This document shows positions 3,264 through 40,854 of a DNA stretch of 64,000 nucleotides, in pieces (position 1 is the first letter of the stretch; each line of letters begins with the position of its first letter). Below the pieces are notes generated by a model, which was given only the letters and a program-made list of their open reading frames with translations, had not been told where the DNA came from and did no database searches. The position numbers and the translations under genes were made by a program. The stretch comes from Pseudidiomarina aquimaris (GTDB lineage Bacteria; Pseudomonadota; Gammaproteobacteria; Enterobacterales; Alteromonadaceae), in contig NZ_PIPT01000001.1 of NCBI RefSeq assembly GCF_003987395.1, positions 310,001 to 374,000 of the forward strand, read 5' to 3'.

Positions 3264-4130
3264 GTGACGACTCAACAACGCTTCATCATTATTGTGCTCA
3301 CCCTAAGCGCTCTGTTAACGGGCTGCTCTACACAATTTGGTTACCGTTTTGCCGATACTTATCTCGAGTGGCAACTTGGCAAATATGTCGATATTTCCGG
3401 CCAACTCGAAACCGATGTCGATGCCTCGATCGATGAACTCCATATGTGGCACGCGCGCTCGGAACTCCCGCGCTACCGTGACCTTCTTGATCAGCTTTTA
3501 GACGATTTAGATCATGGTGCGATTGACGCACAACGGCTATTTGATTACACCGATAACCTATACGGCTTGTGGCAAGATATTCGTCTGCAGGTAACGCCTT
3601 ATGCAAAAGAGTACTTGCCGCGGCTTTCCTTACAGCAACGCACTCAGCTTATCGCGAATTTGCGCGAACGGCTGGATGAAGAACGCGAAGAAGCGCGCGC
3701 AATGAGTGCCGAAGAGCGGTTTGAGCGAAGTTTCGATCGCGCAATTGAACGGGCGAATGATTGGCTTGGCAGGGTACATCAAGAACAGCGCCGCATGATT
3801 CGCCGCTGGCTGCAAGAACGAGATGATAGCGATGCGTTATGGCTGGAATATCAGGAGGTTTGGCTTGCGCGTTTCGCGGAAGTTTTAGCTGAGCCGGAAG
3901 CAGCCGATTTTGCCACGCAAATTGACGCTTTGTTCACTAATCCTGAGCAATTTCGCTCAGCGGAGTTGCAAGCGCAAAGCCAAGCAAATAGGGAACTCGC
4001 TGTCGCGGTGATGTTGGTTATTTACCAAAGTCTCAGCCCGCAACAAGAGCAACACCTGAAGAATACGCTGCGTGAGTACCGCGCGACGTTAACCGATCTG
4101 ATTGACGCCTACGCGGTTCCTGCGGATTAA
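3264..4130 (+). CDS. DUF6279-type lipoprotein
   Basis: 288 residues with a lipoprotein signal: hydrophobic stretch IIIVLTLSALLTGC with C21 as the lipobox cysteine, followed by S-T-Q. The mature part is helical and charged. The pattern 'GYRFADTYLEWQLGKYVDIS' near the N-terminus is the one I associate with DUF6279 proteins of marine gammaproteobacteria; function unknown. Start is GTG at 3264 behind a good RBS (AAAAGGAGCA, 3247-3256). It is 22 bp after the response regulator, so likely in the same transcript. It converges on pykA with only one base between the stop codons and no terminator hairpin there. Confidence 0.75.
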   Translation: MTTQQRFIIIVLTLSALLTGCSTQFGYRFADTYLEWQLGKYVDISGQLETDVDASIDELHMWHARSELPRYRDLLDQLLDDLDHGAIDAQRLFDYTDNLYGLWQDIRLQVTPYAKEYLPRLSLQQRTQLIANLRERLDEEREEARAMSAEERFERSFDRAIERANDWLGRVHQEQRRMIRRWLQERDDSDALWLEYQEVWLARFAEVLAEPEAADFATQIDALFTNPEQFRSAELQAQSQANRELAVAVMLVIYQSLSPQQEQHLKNTLREYRATLTDLIDAYAVPAD

Positions 4131-4131
4131 C

Positions 4132-5568
4132 CTATTTCACTTCGATGATTTTACAAGTATTGGTGGAGCCAACGGTTTCCATTACATCACCGTAGGTCAA
4201 AACCACAATGTCTCCAGCCACCACGTGACCGAGTGCTTTAACTTCGGCGATGGCGTCTTGCACTAAATTTTCCGGCTTGCTTTGGGTGGAATCAAACGCA
4301 ATCGGGTAGACACCTCGGTAGAGTGCACAACGATTACGGCTCGCGGTATGACGCGAAAGCGAGAAAATAGGCAGTATGGTGTGGATCCGCGACATCAATT
4401 TGGCGGTTGAGCCGGATTCCGTTAAGGCAATAATAGCTTTTACGCCAGCCAAGTGGGTGGCCGCATACATTGCCGTAATTGCGGTCGCTTCTTGGGTATT
4501 GGTAAAGGTTTCTTCCAAGTCTTTGCGGTCGAGTCGAGCCGAAGGATGCTCCTCAGCGCCTAGACAAATCTCTGCCATGGCTTTCACCGTCGCGATAGGG
4601 TGTTTGCCTGCAGCTGTCTCGGCCGAGAGCATCACTGCGTCGGTGCCATCAAGCACCGCATTGGCAACGTCCATAACCTCGGCGCGGGTAGGCATGGAGT
4701 TTTCAATCATCGACTCCATCATTTGCGTTGCCGTGATCACCACCTTATTGAGTTGGCGAGCGCGTTCGATAATACGTTTCTGTTTACCGACCAACTGCGC
4801 ATCACCAATTTCCACACCCAAGTCACCACGCGCGACCATCACCGCCTCGGAGGCGCGAATAATATCGTCGAGCGCAGCATCGTTGGCGACCGCTTCAGCG
4901 CGTTCAATTTTGGCGCAAAGCATGCCGGTACCATTTGCTGCTCGCAATAGACGGCGGGCTTCGTTCATGTCAGCGCCTGATCGCGGGAATGATACTGCAA
5001 GGTAATCAACGCCAATCTCTGCGGCTAACTTAATATCCTCAAGATCTTTCTCGGTAAGCGCCGCAGCAGAAAGACCACCACCTAAGCGGTTGATGCCTTT
5101 ATTGTTAGAAAGCTTGCCACCAACCAAAACCGTGGTGATGACTTTTGCACCCTCGACTTTATCCACTCGCAAACGTAAACGGCCATCATCTAACAATAGA
5201 ATGTCGCCGGGCTCTACGTCTTGGGGTAACTCTTTATAATCAATACCGACCGCTTGGCCAGTGCCTGCGTCTCGCGCCAAGTCGCCATCAAGCACAAAGG
5301 TATCGCCTTCATCGAGCGTCACCGCATCGTGGACAAACTTAGCGATACGTATTTTAGGGCCTTGTAAGTCGCCAAGAATCGCAACGTGGGTACCAACCTC
5401 AGCACAAATGTCACGCACCATTTGCGCGCGCTGCTTGTGATCATCTGCAGTACCGTGGGAAAAATTCAGTCGAACCACGTTAGCACCGGCCTTGATAAGC
5501 GCTTCTAAGGTACTGCGGTTATCGGTTGCGGGCCCAAGTGTGGTCACAATTTTGGTACGGCGTAACAT
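4132..5568 (-). CDS. pykA: Pyruvate kinase (PykA type)
   Basis: Converts phosphoenolpyruvate and ADP to pyruvate and ATP in the cytoplasm. 478 residues from ATG 5566-5568, chosen over the upstream ATGs because of the strong RBS AAGGAGTCTTAC just before it and because the family begins at [15 protein letters not shown]. Motifs seen: [31 protein letters not shown], the signature [10 protein letters not shown] and C-terminal GSTNTCKI. Length and residues match E. coli PykA (AMP/sugar-phosphate responsive) better than PykF. Divergent from gap. Confidence 0.97.
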
Positions 5569-35913: not shown

Positions 35914-37827
35914 TTACCAAAGACGCTTGTACCACGGTTGCTCAGGTTCGCAGTGTTGCAGTTCGTCTAACCGCTTTTCGATACGAGCGTACAGCTGTTT
36001 CTGATTTTCACCGGTCAAGAGGGCAAGGGCATCCGCAACATCCTCGATGGCATAAATGTGGTAGTTGTTGGCTTCAACGGCGGCGATGATATCCGGCTCA
36101 AGATTAAGCTGACTCATATTCGCTTGGGGAATGATCACGCCTTGCTTGCCATTTAAACCGCGCGCTTGGCAAACTGCGAAATGCCCAGTTATTTTCTCGT
36201 TGACCGAGCCAATGGCTTGCACTGCACCGAATTGATCTACAGCTCCGGTAATTGCAATACCTTGCGCAATAGGTGCTTCGGCAAGAGCTGATAACAGACA
36301 ACACAATTCGGCGAGCGAAGCACTATCACCATCGACCTCATAGTAGGACTGTTCAAAAACGATGGTCGCTGAGAGCCGCATTTCTTCGCTTTTCGCAAAA
36401 ACATTAGCGATATAAGCCGAAAGAATCATCACACCTTTCGTATGAATACTGCCGCTAAGTTCAGACTTGCGATCAATATCGATAATGTCACCATCACCAT
36501 AATGCACGGTCGCCGTTATCCGTGATGGTTCGCCGAATTCACTACCGCCGATGGTCACTACGGTCAGGCCATTGACCTGGCCAACCACATCGCCCTCAGT
36601 GGCGATAAACACTTGGCCCTCGAGGATTTGGCGGCGGCTTAATTCAGCGATATAACCTTCGCGTTGTTGGCGTTGTCTTAGTACTTGCAACACAGCTTCG
36701 TGATCGATGGTGTCTTGTTGCTTTGCTTTGGCAACCGCTCCAGCTTCTCGCAGAAGTTGCATTAACGCGATGGTGTCTAAGGAAAGTTCAGTTTGATAAT
36801 CACTCAACCTTGACGCTTCCTTAAGCACTAATGGCAGTGCTTCAGTGGCAATTGGAAAAGTGGCTGACTCGCGTTCAACATAAGCGAGATAATCAAAGTA
36901 GGGCACTAATTCGTCATGACTCAAGGAATAGTGCGCTGAAAAATCGGCTAAATAAGGAAATAAATTGTCGAAATCACGGTCTAGCTCGCGTAACTGGCCA
37001 TAAATCGAACGGTCACCCAACAATAAAACCTTAAGGTGAATCGGTACGGGTTCTGGCTGATAGTAGGCGGCAATGTTAGCTTCACCCGGCTGCGGCCAAT
37101 GAAATAAACTCGTCCGCAAAATATATTTTAGTTTGCGCCATAAGCCGGGTTGCGTAAGCAACTCTTCGGCATCGATGGCAAGCACACCGCCATTCGCTTT
37201 CAATAAAGCGCCTGGCTGAATGAGATGTAACTCTGAACTAATCGTACCCGCCACTGACTGCAAACGAATACTGCCAAACAGGCTGGTATCGGTCACACGG
37301 TCACAGAGCACGAAATCATCCGTGTGTTGGTCAGACTCAACAATGATGGTTGCCAGTTCATTCCCTGGCAAGTCATCGAATGTTTTGTCATTTACACGCT
37401 GTAGATAGGCGCTAAAACGCTCGCTAGGATAGCCTGTACGCAACTCGTCTAAAAGTTGCTCACGTTCGTTCACCGGCAGCTCAAAGAGCTTCATCAGGCC
37501 AGCTAATACTTCGCGTGCGGTACCGGCGGGTACATTGACACACAATGGTTCACTGGCAGAGTCTGGATTTGCCAAGTAAAGCCAGTCGTGGCGTTCGAAA
37601 TGCATCCACTGGTAGCGCTGTTGCAGCTCTTTTAACACATCGACTACGCGTAAACCCGGCGTTGTTACCATAAAGCCATGGGCATATCTGCCACCAATGC
37701 GCATGGTTTGCTCAATCGCCGCTAAGGCGCGATTTTGCCCAATTAATGGATTCACTGAGGGAGAAGCAGGGCGCTGTTGCGCCCATGCGTAGATAGGAGG
37801 TTGTAATTGTTCTGCTGCAACGCGCAT
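35914..37827 (-). CDS. Lon-like protease of the YcbZ/LonH type
   Basis: 637 residues (E. coli YcbZ 586). The C-terminal S16 protease domain holds the Ser-Lys dyad: S502 in VDGDSAS and K545 in GSVNEKITG, 43 apart as in Lon. The N-terminal region corresponds to an AAA-like module but shows no Walker A GKS/T where expected (VTTPGLRVVDV), so ATP hydrolysis is doubtful. It lies upstream of fabA as ycbZ does in E. coli. Substrates are unknown. Confidence 0.88.
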   Translation of the reverse strand: MRVAAEQLQPPIYAWAQQRPASPSVNPLIGQNRALAAIEQTMRIGGRYAHGFMVTTPGLRVVDVLKELQQRYQWMHFERHDWLYLANPDSASEPLCVNVPAGTAREVLAGLMKLFELPVNEREQLLDELRTGYPSERFSAYLQRVNDKTFDDLPGNELATIIVESDQHTDDFVLCDRVTDTSLFGSIRLQSVAGTISSELHLIQPGALLKANGGVLAIDAEELLTQPGLWRKLKYILRTSLFHWPQPGEANIAAYYQPEPVPIHLKVLLLGDRSIYGQLRELDRDFDNLFPYLADFSAHYSLSHDELVPYFDYLAYVERESATFPIATEALPLVLKEASRLSDYQTELSLDTIALMQLLREAGAVAKAKQQDTIDHEAVLQVLRQRQQREGYIAELSRRQILEGQVFIATEGDVVGQVNGLTVVTIGGSEFGEPSRITATVHYGDGDIIDIDRKSELSGSIHTKGVMILSAYIANVFAKSEEMRLSATIVFEQSYYEVDGDSASLAELCCLLSALAEAPIAQGIAITGAVDQFGAVQAIGSVNEKITGHFAVCQARGLNGKQGVIIPQANMSQLNLEPDIIAAVEANNYHIYAIEDVADALALLTGENQKQLYARIEKRLDELQHCEPEQPWYKRLW

Positions 37828-38867: not shown

Positions 38868-38895
38868 ATTGCGCATAATGTATATCTAGTACGTA
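38868..38895 (+). repeat. Left junction: hybrid dif-like site
   Basis: XerC arm ATTGCGCATAA (38868-38878), central TGTATA (38879-38884), then TCTAGTACGTA, which does not match the XerD arm TTATGTTAAAT. It shares 17 of the first 18 bases with the right-hand dif. This is expected for a host XerC arm joined to element DNA. Confidence 0.8.
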
Positions 38896-39030
38896 ACACG
38901 TGGTCAATTTGAGGTTACACAGCAACGATTTCTTTGTCTAGCAGGAGGGCGATTTACATCATCAAACTTGGACAAATCGAGAGGCCGTAAACAATCTGTT
39001 TACTATGCGAACACCGCATTATGTCTAGCA

Positions 39031-39050
39031 ATAGGGGGCAAGCCCCCTAT
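39031..39050. repeat. Hairpin inside the element
   Basis: ATAGGGGGC-AA-GCCCCCTAT, a perfect 9-bp inverted repeat with only two bases between the arms; a real loop would open the last pair. No T run on either side, so it may act on single-stranded DNA (origin or packaging signal) more than as a terminator. Confidence 0.6.
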
Positions 39051-39130
39051 TTACCCCAAGCTAACTATTAGTGACTCCTAATATTCTAAAAATAGACGGC
39101 ATCATAAGTACGATGAATGCTTTTACAAGC

Positions 39131-39160
39131 TTTAATAAGTATTAATAATGTTTAATAGAT
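39131..39160. repeat. Three TTAATA blocks at exact 10-bp period
   Basis: TTAATA begins at 39132, 39142 and 39152, in helical phase. AT-rich; may be an unwinding or bending element. Confidence 0.5.
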
Positions 39161-39231
39161 CGACAAAATGCCAGCATTTGGACATTTGGAACAACGATAA
39201 ATTGGGAAGGAAGCGTAAGTATAGAAAGATA

Positions 39232-39289
39232 GGGTTAGCGCTCTTTGCACTTTGCCCCTCGCTGCGCTAATTGCAACGTGCGCTAACCC
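39232..39289. repeat. Wide inverted repeat with 38-nt interior
   Basis: GGGTTAGCGC (39232-39241) and GCGCTAACCC (39280-39289) are exact inverses. The interior has further short pairings (TTGCAC..., GCTGCGC). In ssDNA this would fold into a branched structure, as in filamentous-phage intergenic regions. Confidence 0.55.
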
Positions 39290-39295
39290 CTCACT

Positions 39296-39356
39296 GCAAC
39301 ACGGAATATAGATAAACACTTATATTGATGATTATCTATAATGAAGCAACACGGAA
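39296..39356. repeat. Inverted repeat nested in direct repeats
   Basis: GCAACACGGAA occurs at 39296-39306 and 39346-39356. Between the copies TATAGATAA (39307-39315) and TTATCTATA (39332-39340) form a perfect inverted repeat. It lies immediately downstream of the HTH gene stop. Confidence 0.6.
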
Positions 39357-39370
39357 ACGTGACAGAATGC

Positions 39371-39796
39371 CTAACCCGTACCGGTTATGTCGGCACCAAA
39401 ACCCAACTCATCAAGCATTCGCTGCGCCTGTGACAAAGCGTTTCGCAACTTACATTCTGCATCATGTAATTGCCCTGGACGTTCACGAAGTAAGCGCTGA
39501 TACTGGCGTGCTGCCCATTTGTACTGGTAAATAAACTCGATATCAGCGGCCAAAACGACACCGTAAGGGGTTCTAATCTTATCACCCTCAATACGCCAAT
39601 GAGCAAAGCAGCCCTCGAGAGGGAGATAACCACGTTCCATGATAAGCAAATACTTAACGATCACGACAGGGGCTTTATTAGCGTCATACCAGCGGTGTAT
39701 AGTGCGTTCACAGACTCCAAAGTATTCTGCCGCCTTTCGCCAGTTAAAACCGAATACAGAGGCAAACAGGGTGCAATAATCACTATTACGCAGCAT
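39371..39796 (-). CDS. DUF3653-like phage HTH protein
   Basis: 141 residues. The N-terminal part carries a helix-turn-helix (WRKAAEYFGVCERTIHRWYD, about 19-38), followed by YLLIMERGYLP and W-RIEGDKIRTPYG, a pattern I associate with DUF3653 proteins found in gammaproteobacterial filamentous phages. The C-terminal half is helical and Arg/Gln-rich. The ATG at 39794-39796 overlaps the end of rep by 11 bp and follows GGGGGAA. Probable regulator of the element, but DNA targets are unproven. Confidence 0.75.
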   Translation of the reverse strand: MLRNSDYCTLFASVFGFNWRKAAEYFGVCERTIHRWYDANKAPVVIVKYLLIMERGYLPLEGCFAHWRIEGDKIRTPYGVVLAADIEFIYQYKWAARQYQRLLRERPGQLHDAECKLRNALSQAQRMLDELGFGADITGTG

Positions 39797-40595
39797 TGGA
39801 ATGTTCCCCCAAATCTAAAGACGCAATATAGTCCCTATGTTCATGACACCAACGCGAGCCCATTATTGAGCGAACGCCATCAAATGAAGCCTCCACGCCG
39901 TATTTGCTGGAAACTAGGGCAACGAACAACGAAACTTTTTTACGCCATTCTCTAGCCCCGTCAGACGCCCAAGAGAAGCGAGAATTAGCCACTCTAATAC
40001 CTTTTGAGTAACCAACGAGACGAACACCTTTATCAAGCGGTGAACGTTGCCCCATATCTTTCCCGAGATACTTGCTTAAATATTTAGCCATAACCGAGCC
40101 CGAAGAACGCACAGGCTCTAGCTGATGACGGCCAAAAGAGTATTTGGGGAGATTTTCTCGAAGGTCTTTCCAGTAAGCACGAAGTGAAGGGGGAACACTG
40201 CTGTAGTTTCGAGACCTTACGGCCTCGAAATCGAATCCAGTGCGAATGTCACAATCAGTTATTACCAAAAGATGCAAATGAAGCCTACGATTTTTGTGGC
40301 GTTCATAGACTCGAACCCAATGCTTGAATTTACGCTTTAGGTAGTTTGACGCAAGTGAGTTAAAACGCTTGGAGGCTTCCTTGCCGTTAATCACTTGGTC
40401 AGGAAAGGTAAGGGTAAGAAAACCAACGTAATTAATGCCGTGAGTTTGTATTAAAAAATCGACGTTTTCACGCAGTACAAACATGGCTTTTCTCACTGCA
40501 TTGGGAAGCGTTTCGATTGAATTGTTTATATTTAGACAAGGAAGAGGCGCACCGCTTTGCGGCGCACCTCCGTGCGGCAAAGTTGAGGTATTCAT
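39786..40595 (-). CDS. HUH rolling-circle replication initiator of the element
   Basis: 269 residues from ATG 40593-40595, preferred to a TTG 12 bp upstream because GGAG sits just before it. HUH-endonuclease motifs are in order: motif I FLTLTF (59-64), HUH motif LHLHLL with H106 and H108, and motif III YLSKY with Y172, K175 and Y176. A central basic patch follows Y85. Such proteins nick one strand and start rolling-circle replication in filamentous phages, plasmids and satellites. Its RBS lies inside a 7-bp inverted repeat (40601-40617). It overlaps the HTH gene downstream. Confidence 0.88.
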   Translation of the reverse strand: MNTSTLPHGGAPQSGAPLPCLNINNSIETLPNAVRKAMFVLRENVDFLIQTHGINYVGFLTLTFPDQVINGKEASKRFNSLASNYLKRKFKHWVRVYERHKNRRLHLHLLVITDCDIRTGFDFEAVRSRNYSSVPPSLRAYWKDLRENLPKYSFGRHQLEPVRSSGSVMAKYLSKYLGKDMGQRSPLDKGVRLVGYSKGIRVANSRFSWASDGAREWRKKVSLFVALVSSKYGVEASFDGVRSIMGSRWCHEHRDYIASLDLGEHSNAA

Positions 40596-40600
40596 TTTCA

Positions 40601-40617
40601 GCTCCAAAAATTGGAGC
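40601..40617 (-). promoter_or_regulatory. Inverted repeat covering the rep ribosome-binding site
   Basis: GCTCCAA-AAA-TTGGAGC. On the rep mRNA the second arm is TTGGAGC, which is the Shine-Dalgarno, 6 nt before the ATG. It could be an RNA hairpin shutting translation, or a DNA operator. Confidence 0.6.
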
Positions 40618-40635
40618 AGGTCGGGTTTTGTAGTA

Positions 40636-40675
40636 CATTAGAACCGTCACCTGCGTGTAGTGAATGCATTAGAAC
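40636..40675. repeat. Direct and inverted repeats upstream of rep
   Basis: CATTAGAAC occurs at 40636-40644 and 40667-40675, 31 bp apart (three helical turns). In addition GTCACCT (40646-40652) and AGGTGAC (40686-40692) form an inverted repeat. Candidate repressor or Rep binding sites. Confidence 0.55.
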
Positions 40676-40696
40676 AATCTGTTCAAGGTGACCACG

Positions 40697-40731
40697 CCCC
40701 GAGACTTTCGCAGAGTCTGCGGGGTTTTTTT
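40697..40731 (+). terminator. Plus-strand terminator within the element
   Basis: CCCCGAGACT (40697-40706) pairs with AGTCTGCGGGG (40714-40724) with a small bulge, followed by seven T. It points against rep, so something must be transcribed rightward toward it, most simply a short RNA starting near or inside the 5' end of rep. Confidence 0.75.
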
Positions 40732-40826
40732 ATGCCTGAAACTGGATTTCCAGAGGCCGTTACTCGCCGTGCATTGAATCGGTTAAGGGGTCAAACCGTA
40801 CTCCTCCAATGCCCTCAAATATCCCC

Positions 40827-40854
40827 ATTACGCATAATGTATATTATGTTAAAT
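40827..40854 (+). other. dif: dif site (XerCD chromosome dimer resolution site)
   Basis: 28 bp: XerC arm ATTACGCATAA (40827-40837), central TGTATA (40838-40843), XerD arm TTATGTTAAAT (40844-40854). From base 5 of the XerC arm on it is identical to E. coli dif as I recall it. This places the replication terminus here. The XerC arm present now probably came from the element, as the left junction has the G variant. Confidence 0.92.

What the first reader, a model, noticed from the sequence alone, without database searches (positions are those of the whole stretch)
38868..40854. A 1.96-kb element with only Rep and an HTH protein, integrated at dif
The sequence shows a complete dif at 40827-40854 and, 1959 bp to the left, a site with the same XerC arm and central region but a different XerD arm. 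That is the pattern left by Xer-mediated integration of a circular element. Inside are an HUH Rep and a DUF3653-like protein and no virion, assembly, secretion or recombinase genes. This is smaller than RS1-type satellites (about 2.7 kb) and may be a minimal, undescribed class of Xer-dependent satellite or plasmid-like element that replicates by rolling circle and relies on host XerCD and perhaps a helper phage.
Basis: partly seen in the sequence, partly recalled or inferred. Interest (0 to 1): 0.92.

Follow-up and report, generated by a model that had tools for sequence, protein, structure and literature searches.

The report
Tiny two-gene element inserted at dif
A two-kilobase piece of mobile DNA with only two genes, one to copy itself and one that may steer the host's own chromosome-separating enzymes, sits at the host's dif site; some relatives in neighbouring species are even smaller and may depend on filamentous phages.

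Summary
A 1,959-bp element lies between a partial and a complete dif; close relatives have one empty dif between the same flanks. It encodes an HUH Rep related to Arp of very small "phasyl" plasmids and an HTH protein remotely related to VC1465/XafT, the Xer activation factor of TLCphi. Its attP has the TLCphi design: XerC arm and central region like dif, degenerate XerD arm. Idiomarina ramblicola and a second genome of its genus carry Rep+HTH elements (1.81 and 1.82 kb), the latter with an element-element junction. Two genomes of the window's genus carry 1.52- and 1.57-kb elements with the HTH and no Rep. Filamentous prophages at dif carry the same HTH beside attL. All five mini-elements share an origin-like hairpin module, found also in two of seven Arp plasmids tested. 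The Rep-less ones, not the window element, also carry a motif found in those prophages that resembles a phage origin. So this is a TLCphi-like Xer-exploiting mini-element with an Arp replicon: a new variant of a known kind. Replication, XerD activation and any helper are inferred; the XafT link is below family cut-off.

The parts
38879..40837 (.). the integrated element, 1,959 bp (one period from attL to attR)
   Evidence: half-site to half-site spacing; flanks on both sides homologous to single-dif loci of relatives
38868..38895 (+). attL: chromosomal XerC arm 38868-38878, central region TGTATA 38879-38884, degenerate XerD arm of the element 38885-38895
40827..40854 (+). attR = restored dif: element XerC arm 40827-40837 (ATTACGCATAA), central region 40838-40843, chromosomal XerD arm 40844-40854
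39786..40607 (-). rep: HUH rolling-circle replication initiator of the Arp (phasyl) kind, 273 aa (TTG start; an in-frame ATG lies at 40595)
   Evidence: Pfam PF23343 2.9e-9; 26 plasmid records at 37-47% identity; H110, H112, Y176, Y180 invariant in 7 aligned Reps
39371..39796 (-). HTH gene, 141 aa, overlaps the end of rep; candidate Xer activation factor (XafT/VC1465-like)
   Evidence: phrog_23834 1.2e-29; NCBIfam VC1465_fam 4.6e-4, 20.2 bits against a cut-off of 70; profile-profile probability 98.2% with VC1465-like proteins
40642..40732 (-). origin-like module: bulged hairpin 40697-40724 and a GTCACC/GGTGAC inverted repeat
   Evidence: the same layout in L064, L103, L104 and plasmids L003, L006, all in the model's training set, and in G904, found independently by the model (80.3 bits); different inner stems that all pair
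40601..40617 (-). palindrome GCTCCAATTTTTGGAGC containing the GGAG just before the rep ATG; a like palindrome in L064, L152, L103, L104
   Evidence: by eye
39232..39289 (.). long imperfect hairpin in the non-coding part (DNA fold z -3.2 and -3.7 on the two strands)
39030..39051 (.). GGGGG...CCCCC hairpin, present in all five mini-elements
38935..38945 (-). CCTGCTAGACA box near attL, present as CCTGC[TA]AGACA in all five mini-elements; once in the 64-kb window

Best explanation
This is a minimal integrative element that exploits the host's Xer system (an IMEX) in the manner of TLCphi. Its circular double-stranded form carries one attP with a good XerC arm and a central region identical to dif, but a degenerate XerD arm. 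The small HTH protein probably plays the part of XafT: it helps XerD act at the degenerate site, so XerCD can integrate and excise the circle at dif without a recombinase of its own, leaving a working dif on one side. The Arp-type HUH Rep nicks the element and drives rolling-circle replication of the excised form or of tandem copies. Shown by sequence: integration at dif, the attP design, empty sites in relatives, independent relatives, one element-element junction, a shared origin-like module. Inferred: replication, XerD activation by the HTH protein, excision, and how it moves between cells (perhaps packaging by a filamentous phage).
For: Two dif-like sites in the genome. Single empty dif between homologous flanks in G018, G008, G002. 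Of 26 same-genus genomes, 4 have a second half-site near dif (window, G001, G013, G023), and the HTH family is found in the same 4 (20 of the other 22 are visible there as negatives, 2 are in the unlisted part). In 8 of the 9 genomes that the HTH profile hits, a homologue lies within about 7 kb of a full dif; in G089 none was seen. All 7 elements compared keep the central region TGTATA and have 5-8 mismatches of 11 in the XerD arm (some counted by eye), the attP design described for TLCphi in PMC4246890 and PMC5357621 (passages). Independent Rep+HTH elements: L064 = G888 (1,812 bp, rep broken) and G904 (1,823 bp, both genes intact). In G904 contig C2 ends in a second copy (180 bp, 100%) and contig C7 starts with the last 225 bp of the element and the other flank: a head-to-tail array, or an integrated copy plus a circle. 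HTH against VC1465-like profile 98.2% probability. Different but always paired inner stems in the origin hairpin. XerD over cut-off plus a second Xer in 5 of 5 element genomes.
Against: The HTH protein scores 20 bits against a 70-bit cut-off for VC1465_fam, and the 12 proteins of the comparison profile are themselves below it. At E<=0.001 that profile rings in 110 of 345 order genomes and in 4 of 14 control genomes, so a score like the window's is weak on its own. Of the 20 best VC1465-like loci only one (L096) has a full dif in its stretch of about 3 kb. Of the five HTHs scanned, L103 and L104 gave no VC1465_fam hit at E<=0.1. Foldseek on a modest model (pLDDT 71.7, pTM 0.46) gave nothing at E<=0.001, with HipB/Cro-like HTH proteins ranked first at E 1 and above, so a plain repressor is not excluded. 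The hairpin arms were picked from predicted folds, which favours pairing. No circular form or transcript has been seen for the window element.
Confidence: 0.65

Rival explanations
1. A true satellite of a filamentous phage: the element is replicated and packaged as single-stranded DNA by a helper, like TLCphi or RS1 (recalled), and Xer integration is only its resting state.
For: Filamentous prophages with the same HTH gene beside attL sit at dif in G013 (7,892 bp) and G052 (7,263 bp). Rep-less relatives L103 and L104 share with those phages a non-coding motif plus hairpin (z 5.8-11.6; 3 and 2 mismatches). Two of seven Arp plasmids carry the same kind of motif: L005 is 93% identical over 44 bp to f1/M13/fd, where the fd record is annotated 'origin of viral strand synthesis'; L006 is 87% identical over 39 bp to Lineavirus I22, E 4e-3.
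Against: The window element, L064 and L152 have no such motif at up to 4 mismatches, and their non-coding parts do not resemble those of the prophages (z -1.1 to 1.4). 21 further loci, among them the three Pseudoalteromonas prophages and seven Neisseria-type contigs, have none at up to 3. No Zot gene in the 5 genomes that carry mini-elements, two of which are incomplete. The window's non-coding part matched phages only at chance level.
Confidence: 0.4
2. The HTH protein is a copy-number or lysogeny repressor (Cro/CI-like) and has nothing to do with Xer; integration uses XerCD alone.
For: HipB/Cro-like HTH proteins rank first, without significance, in the fold search; Phage_CI_repr sub-threshold hits for L103/L104; the palindrome before rep could be its operator. 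The VC1465 profile also rings in 4 of 14 control genomes at E<=0.001.
Against: It is the only gene I found in common between the prophages and the mini-elements at dif. Similarity to VC1465_fam runs beyond the HTH (profile positions 8-104 of 111), whereas many of the weaker hits end near position 50. The palindrome also stands before the HTH gene in elements without rep.
Confidence: 0.28
3. A remnant of a decayed filamentous prophage at dif, not an element in its own right.
For: Same attachment site and HTH as the filamentous prophages; L064 has a broken rep.
Against: Both att ends present, 1.8-1.96 kb in three species, intact Rep in two of three, an element-element junction in G904, a shared origin-like module, and a Rep (Arp type) unlike that of the prophage L100 (rep_II_X).
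Confidence: 0.07
4. VGJphi-like (XerC first) or GGI-like (FtsK-dependent) integration instead of a TLCphi-like reaction.
For: GGI also combines a good XerC arm and central region with a divergent XerD arm (PMC5357621, passage).
Against: VGJphi differs from dif within the central region, these elements do not; GGI has no small activation factor that I know of (recalled), these elements have the HTH.
Confidence: 0.2

Closest known systems
TLCphi satellite phage of Vibrio cholerae and its factor XafT (VC1465)
   Same: integrated at dif with host XerCD; attP with XerC arm and central region like dif and a degenerate XerD arm (PMC4246890, PMC5357621, passages); small HTH factor remotely related to VC1465_fam; no virion genes
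   Different: 1.96 kb, well below TLCphi (about 5 kb, recalled); Arp-type Rep; HTH far below the VC1465_fam cut-off; hosts are Idiomarina-like bacteria, not vibrios
Arp/phasyl plasmids (26 records of 0.7-2.3 kb; Enterobacteriaceae, Aeromonas, Pasteurella)
   Same: Rep 37-47% identical; bulged origin hairpin and inverted repeat (2 of 7 records tested)
   Different: free plasmids in the records; no dif-like site at up to 8 mismatches in 7 of 7 tested; the L064 HTH search of plasmids found 4 records, none an Arp plasmid; 2 of 7 carry a filamentous-phage-like origin motif, which the window element lacks
Filamentous prophages L100 (G013) and L130 (G052) at dif in the same and a neighbouring genus
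   Same: same integration site and attP design; homologous HTH gene next to attL
   Different: 7.3-7.9 kb with Zot and other phage genes; in L100 a II/X-family Rep
VGJphi and the gonococcal genetic island (GGI)
   Same: single dif-like attP recombined by host XerCD
   Different: VGJphi: mismatched central region, XerC only; GGI: 57 kb, FtsK-dependent (PMC5357621, passages)
Neisseria-type contigs with an Arp-like Rep (L070-L076, IMG/VR)
   Same: Rep 36-39% identical
   Different: phage-sized; no dif half-site at up to 3 mismatches in the 7 loci; host inferred from uptake-sequence-like repeats, a recalled motif; gene content viewed only for L075

Membership tests
IMEX (integrative mobile element exploiting Xer) | integrated exactly at dif, restoring a full dif | tested here: met
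IMEX (integrative mobile element exploiting Xer) | no recombinase of its own | tested here: met
   two recognisable genes; no PHROG hit for five other ORFs
IMEX (integrative mobile element exploiting Xer) | host has XerC and XerD | tested here: met
   XerD over cut-off and a second Xer-like gene in 5 of 5 element genomes; XerC was not searched with its own model
IMEX (integrative mobile element exploiting Xer) | recombination by XerCD | not testable with these tools
   needs an assay
TLCphi-type IMEX | attP with XerC arm and central region of dif, degenerate XerD arm | tested here: met
   in 7 of 7 elements
TLCphi-type IMEX | encodes the XafT factor | tested here: inconclusive
   VC1465_fam 20.2 bits against cut-off 70; profile comparison 98.2% with proteins that are also below cut-off
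TLCphi-type IMEX | XerD-first, FtsK-independent exchange | not testable with these tools
   needs an assay
VC1465_fam / XafT protein family | score over the curated cut-off | tested here: not met
   20-28 bits for window, L064 and L100; cut-off 70; no hit for L103, L104; L152 and L130 not scanned
DUF3653 (PF12375) | score over the gathering cut-off (22.4 bits) | tested here: not met
   window no hit at E<=1; L064 17.9 and L152 16.5 bits; none for four other homologues
Arp/phasyl replicon | Arp-type HUH Rep | tested here: met
Arp/phasyl replicon | origin hairpin module as in L003 and L006 | tested here: met
   only 2 of 7 Arp plasmids tested have it, so it may not define the family
Arp/phasyl replicon | free circular plasmid | not tested
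   only the integrated form is in the assembly; G904 shows an element-element junction
filamentous-phage satellite | no virion or assembly genes | tested here: met
filamentous-phage satellite | helper-like origin | tested here: not met
   motif absent at up to 4 mismatches in the window element; present in L103, L104; an unknown helper's origin could be missed
filamentous-phage satellite | mobilised by a helper | not testable with these tools
   no Zot in 5 of 5 genomes with mini-elements, which does not exclude an outside helper

The most novel reading that the evidence does not exclude
In Idiomarina-like bacteria there is a ladder of Xer hitch-hikers built round one small XerD-activating protein: filamentous phages, then two-gene Rep+factor elements (1.8-2.0 kb), then 1.5-kb elements that keep the factor, an Arp-type origin and a phage-like origin but have no Rep, so are copied in trans. 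The factor alone is the core gene, and Arp 'phasyl' plasmids of enterobacteria are free-living cousins of the same design.
Probability: 0.45. Interest if true: 0.78.

Novelty: new variant of a known kind. Interest (0 to 1): 0.62.

Why it matters
It suggests how little an integrating element needs when it borrows the chromosome-dimer machinery: an origin, a 28-bp attP and one or two small genes. It links the Arp/phasyl plasmids to dif-integrated elements and filamentous phages, and gives a natural set of elements with and without Rep in which XafT-type activation of XerD can be tested. The Rep-less 1.5-kb relatives would be very small integrating satellites if they prove mobile.

Tried and rejected
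Tried without result: Rep in INPHARED phages by tblastn, no match; window HTH in phages, two distant Vibrio phage records; HTH alone in viral contigs, none; A3 in viral contigs, one locus, L129, the same prophage as L100; L100 HTH in phages, none; element DNA in plasmids, none; Rfam, none; Rep profile against PDB sequences, none; fold search of the HTH, nothing at E<=0.001; window non-coding part against phages, only E 0.1 and above; L100 origin region against phages, none; Rep in 97 relatives, only the window's own genome; literature for 'phasyl', for six phrases on filamentous-phage satellites and for phage-plasmid hybrid/Arp terms, 0 papers each in the held library; the XafT paper itself (PMC6744903) is not held, so XafT rests on another paper's passage.

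Rejected: further elements in the long TraB-dif gaps of G009 and G007 (ordinary-looking genes); a 2-mismatch half-site about 1.4 kb from dif in G025, which lies beyond the TraB gene and lacks the flanking ATTN form; the origin-model hit in G797 (27.7 bits, no half-site near) as chance; G004's 33.9-bit hit beside its dif is kept only as a possible scar. The genome-contig scan used two narrow peptide patterns that the G904 Rep would not match, so its 8 loci are a lower bound. The two-row HTH model found only the window's genome among 369. The Rep profile found 1 of 394 order genomes, the window's own; since the profile includes the G904 Rep, G904 was evidently not in that sample. Likewise G001 and G023 do not appear in the 246-genome origin search. 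On rechecking I lowered the best explanation from 0.68 to 0.65 and raised the repressor rival from 0.25 to 0.28, because the VC1465 profile also rings in control genomes and its best loci are mostly not at dif, and I no longer call the G904 junction proof of an array.
Full report
What is there. The window holds a 1,959-bp insert between a left half-site (38868-38895) and a complete dif (40827-40854). A 14-bp half-site pattern with up to one mismatch hits only these two places in the 2.8-Mb assembly; the reversed control hits once. The window lies inside a long contig (G000:C1:310001-374000), and both flanks are chromosomal. The two XerC arms differ by one base: the left has the commonest form of the genus (10 of 25 other sites), the right a form seen in 0 of 25. 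So the left arm is the chromosome's and the right arm the element's.

Empty sites. Each of 26 same-genus genomes has one full dif at up to 2 mismatches. In G018 the TraB-family gene (87% identical) starts about 150 bp from its single dif, against about 160 bp from the window's left site. In G018, G008 and G002 both flanks align at 73-83%: the left alignments end 41-236 bp before the single dif, the right ones begin 3-26 bp after it. I scanned the dif neighbourhoods of the 25 relatives (19 at up to 2 mismatches, 6 at up to 3; stretches of 6-13 kb). A second half-site is present in 3 of 25 (G001, G013, G023), so 4 of 26 with the window; one further 2-mismatch sequence in G025 I judge chance. The HTH family profile hits the same 4 (the listing shows 20 of the remaining 22 as negative and cuts off the rest). 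In all it hits 9 of 146 relatives. In 8 of these 9 a homologue lies within about 7 kb of a full dif (in G030 the second, weaker one). The exception is G089, whose match is at a contig edge with no dif in the 9 kb fetched.

Genes. Rep (39786-40607, minus) matches REP_ORF2-G2P and is 37-47% identical to translated stretches of 26 plasmid records of 0.7-2.3 kb, three of them annotated as 'phasyl DNA replicon protein arp'. The two histidines of the HUH motif (H110, H112) and two tyrosines (Y176, Y180) are invariant in 7 aligned Reps. The second gene (39371-39796, minus) overlaps the end of rep. It matches phrog_23834 (1.2e-29) and, below cut-off, the VC1465 family 'Xer recombination activation factor' (4.6e-4). 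The L064 and L100 homologues match that family at 2.1e-6 and 2.1e-4, the L103 and L104 homologues not at E<=0.1. A profile of 7 homologues against 12 VC1465-like proteins (from 12 of the 20 loci) gives 98.2% probability over the HTH and the following conserved part. Three facts weaken this: those 12 are themselves under the family cut-off; at E<=0.001 the family profile rings in 110 of 345 order genomes and 4 of 14 control genomes; and only 1 of the 20 loci has a full dif in its stretch of about 3 kb.

Relatives at dif. G904, of the same genus label g28, has an 1,823-bp element with intact Rep (54% identical to the window's) and HTH. There the contig runs on from the first copy through an element-element junction into 180 bp of a second copy, and another contig begins with the last 225 bp of the element and the other chromosomal flank. 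That is a head-to-tail array, or an integrated copy together with a free circle; the assembly cannot tell. G001 and G023, of the window's genus, carry 1,517- and 1,572-bp elements with the HTH gene, a small ORF after it (104 and 97 aa, no PHROG or NCBIfam hit) and no trace of rep (tblastn E<=1). These genomes are 77 and 88% complete, so a Rep elsewhere could be missed. G013 (7,892 bp, L100) and G052 (7,263 bp, L130) have filamentous prophages with Zot, and the same HTH gene lies beside attL. In all seven the central region is TGTATA and the XerD arm has 5-8 mismatches of 11. This is the attP layout described for TLCphi in two reviews (passages read, PMC4246890 and PMC5357621). The dif of Idiomarina loihiensis in PMC2731167 (passage) fits the genus; that the window comes from an Idiomarina-like bacterium is my inference.

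Origin-like module. Next to the full dif all five mini-elements have a bulged hairpin and an inverted repeat; the same module precedes arp in an Aeromonas plasmid (L003) and an E. coli plasmid (L006). Across six of these the inner stem has five different sequences and all 30 cells pair. 2 of 720 re-pairings of the arms do as well, which fits the swap of two identical arms. I chose the arms from predicted folds, which favours pairing. A covariance model finds the six it was built from in 40 loci, with a seventh hit at E 0.32. In 246 family genomes it finds G000, G888 and, independently, G904, plus two weak hits (G004, G797). A terminator-like reading of the hairpin on the other strand is possible; the similar loop and the place before rep favour an origin. 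All five also share a G5/C5 hairpin and a CCTGC[TA]AGACA box near attL; the two prophages have neither in exact form.

Link to filamentous phages. The Rep-less elements share with both prophages a non-coding stretch (z 5.8-11.6 against 60 shuffles each): a motif followed by a small hairpin. With one pattern it is found at 0 mismatches in L100 and L130, 2 in L104, 3 in L103, 1 in plasmid L006 and 3 in plasmid L005. It is not found at up to 4 in the window element, L064, L152 or the other five plasmids. The 64-kb window has 0 hits at up to 3 and 2 at up to 4, and 21 further loci have none at up to 3, including Pseudoalteromonas prophages. In L005 the motif lies in 44 bp that are 93% identical to f1, M13 and fd, where the fd record is annotated 'origin of viral strand synthesis'. 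L006 resembles Lineavirus I22 (87% over 39 bp, E 4e-3). So two Arp plasmids and the Rep-less elements look like passengers of filamentous phages. The window element does not show this mark and has its own Rep. No Zot gene was found in the five genomes with mini-elements.

How it most likely works. Shown: site-specific insertion at dif, TLCphi-like attP, empty sites, sister elements, one element-element junction, a shared origin-like module. Inferred: Rep starts rolling-circle copying; the HTH protein helps XerD at the weak arm; XerC finishes; the reaction reverses. Transfer between cells is unexplained for the window element; packaging by a filamentous phage is plausible by analogy only.

Novelty. 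A known kind (Xer-exploiting element, TLCphi-like) in a new, very small form with an Arp replicon. I found no description in the held library: nine searches, seen as listings, several of them capped well below the number of matching papers; passages of six papers were read. That library lacks most subscription papers, including the XafT paper.

Noticed in passing
L103 about 3660-5190 and L104 4878-6477: 1.5-kb dif elements with HTH and a small ORF each (104 and 97 aa, no PHROG or NCBIfam hit), no Rep, with a phage-like origin motif.
   Followed up: partly
L100 6636-7313: The filamentous prophage in G013 carries an O-acetyltransferase-like gene (phrog_3333, 1.7e-22).
   Followed up: no
L132 8422 and L133 7666 (G030): A 2-mismatch half-site and a full dif about 19 kb apart, each with an HTH homologue close by: one large or several stacked elements.
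   Followed up: no
L142, L143, L144: Pseudoalteromonas second replicons carry filamentous-type prophages with Zot and an HTH homologue at 28-32% identity to the L064 protein; no clear dif half-site was seen in these stretches with the standard pattern.
   Followed up: no
L145 6680-7066: A Vibrio gazogenes 11.9-kb plasmid with a 'major capsid protein P2' gene also carries a DUF3653 protein related to the HTH.
   Followed up: no
L116 7153-7683: G293 has a VC1465-like protein (7.3e-9) about 130 bp from a full dif, beside genes that look viral to the eye.
   Followed up: no
L062, L063, L065-L069: Arp-like Reps in Nevskiaceae and Verrucomicrobiota-type contigs with no convincing dif (one 8-mismatch hit in L065).
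   Followed up: no
L112 (G004), beside dif: An origin-module-like hairpin (33.9 bits) lies next to an otherwise empty dif: possible scar of an earlier element.
   Followed up: partly
window 35914-37827: A gene that looks like a Lon-type protease (by eye) lies near dif in the window, in I. ramblicola and in G052; dif keeps the same neighbour across genera.
   Followed up: partly
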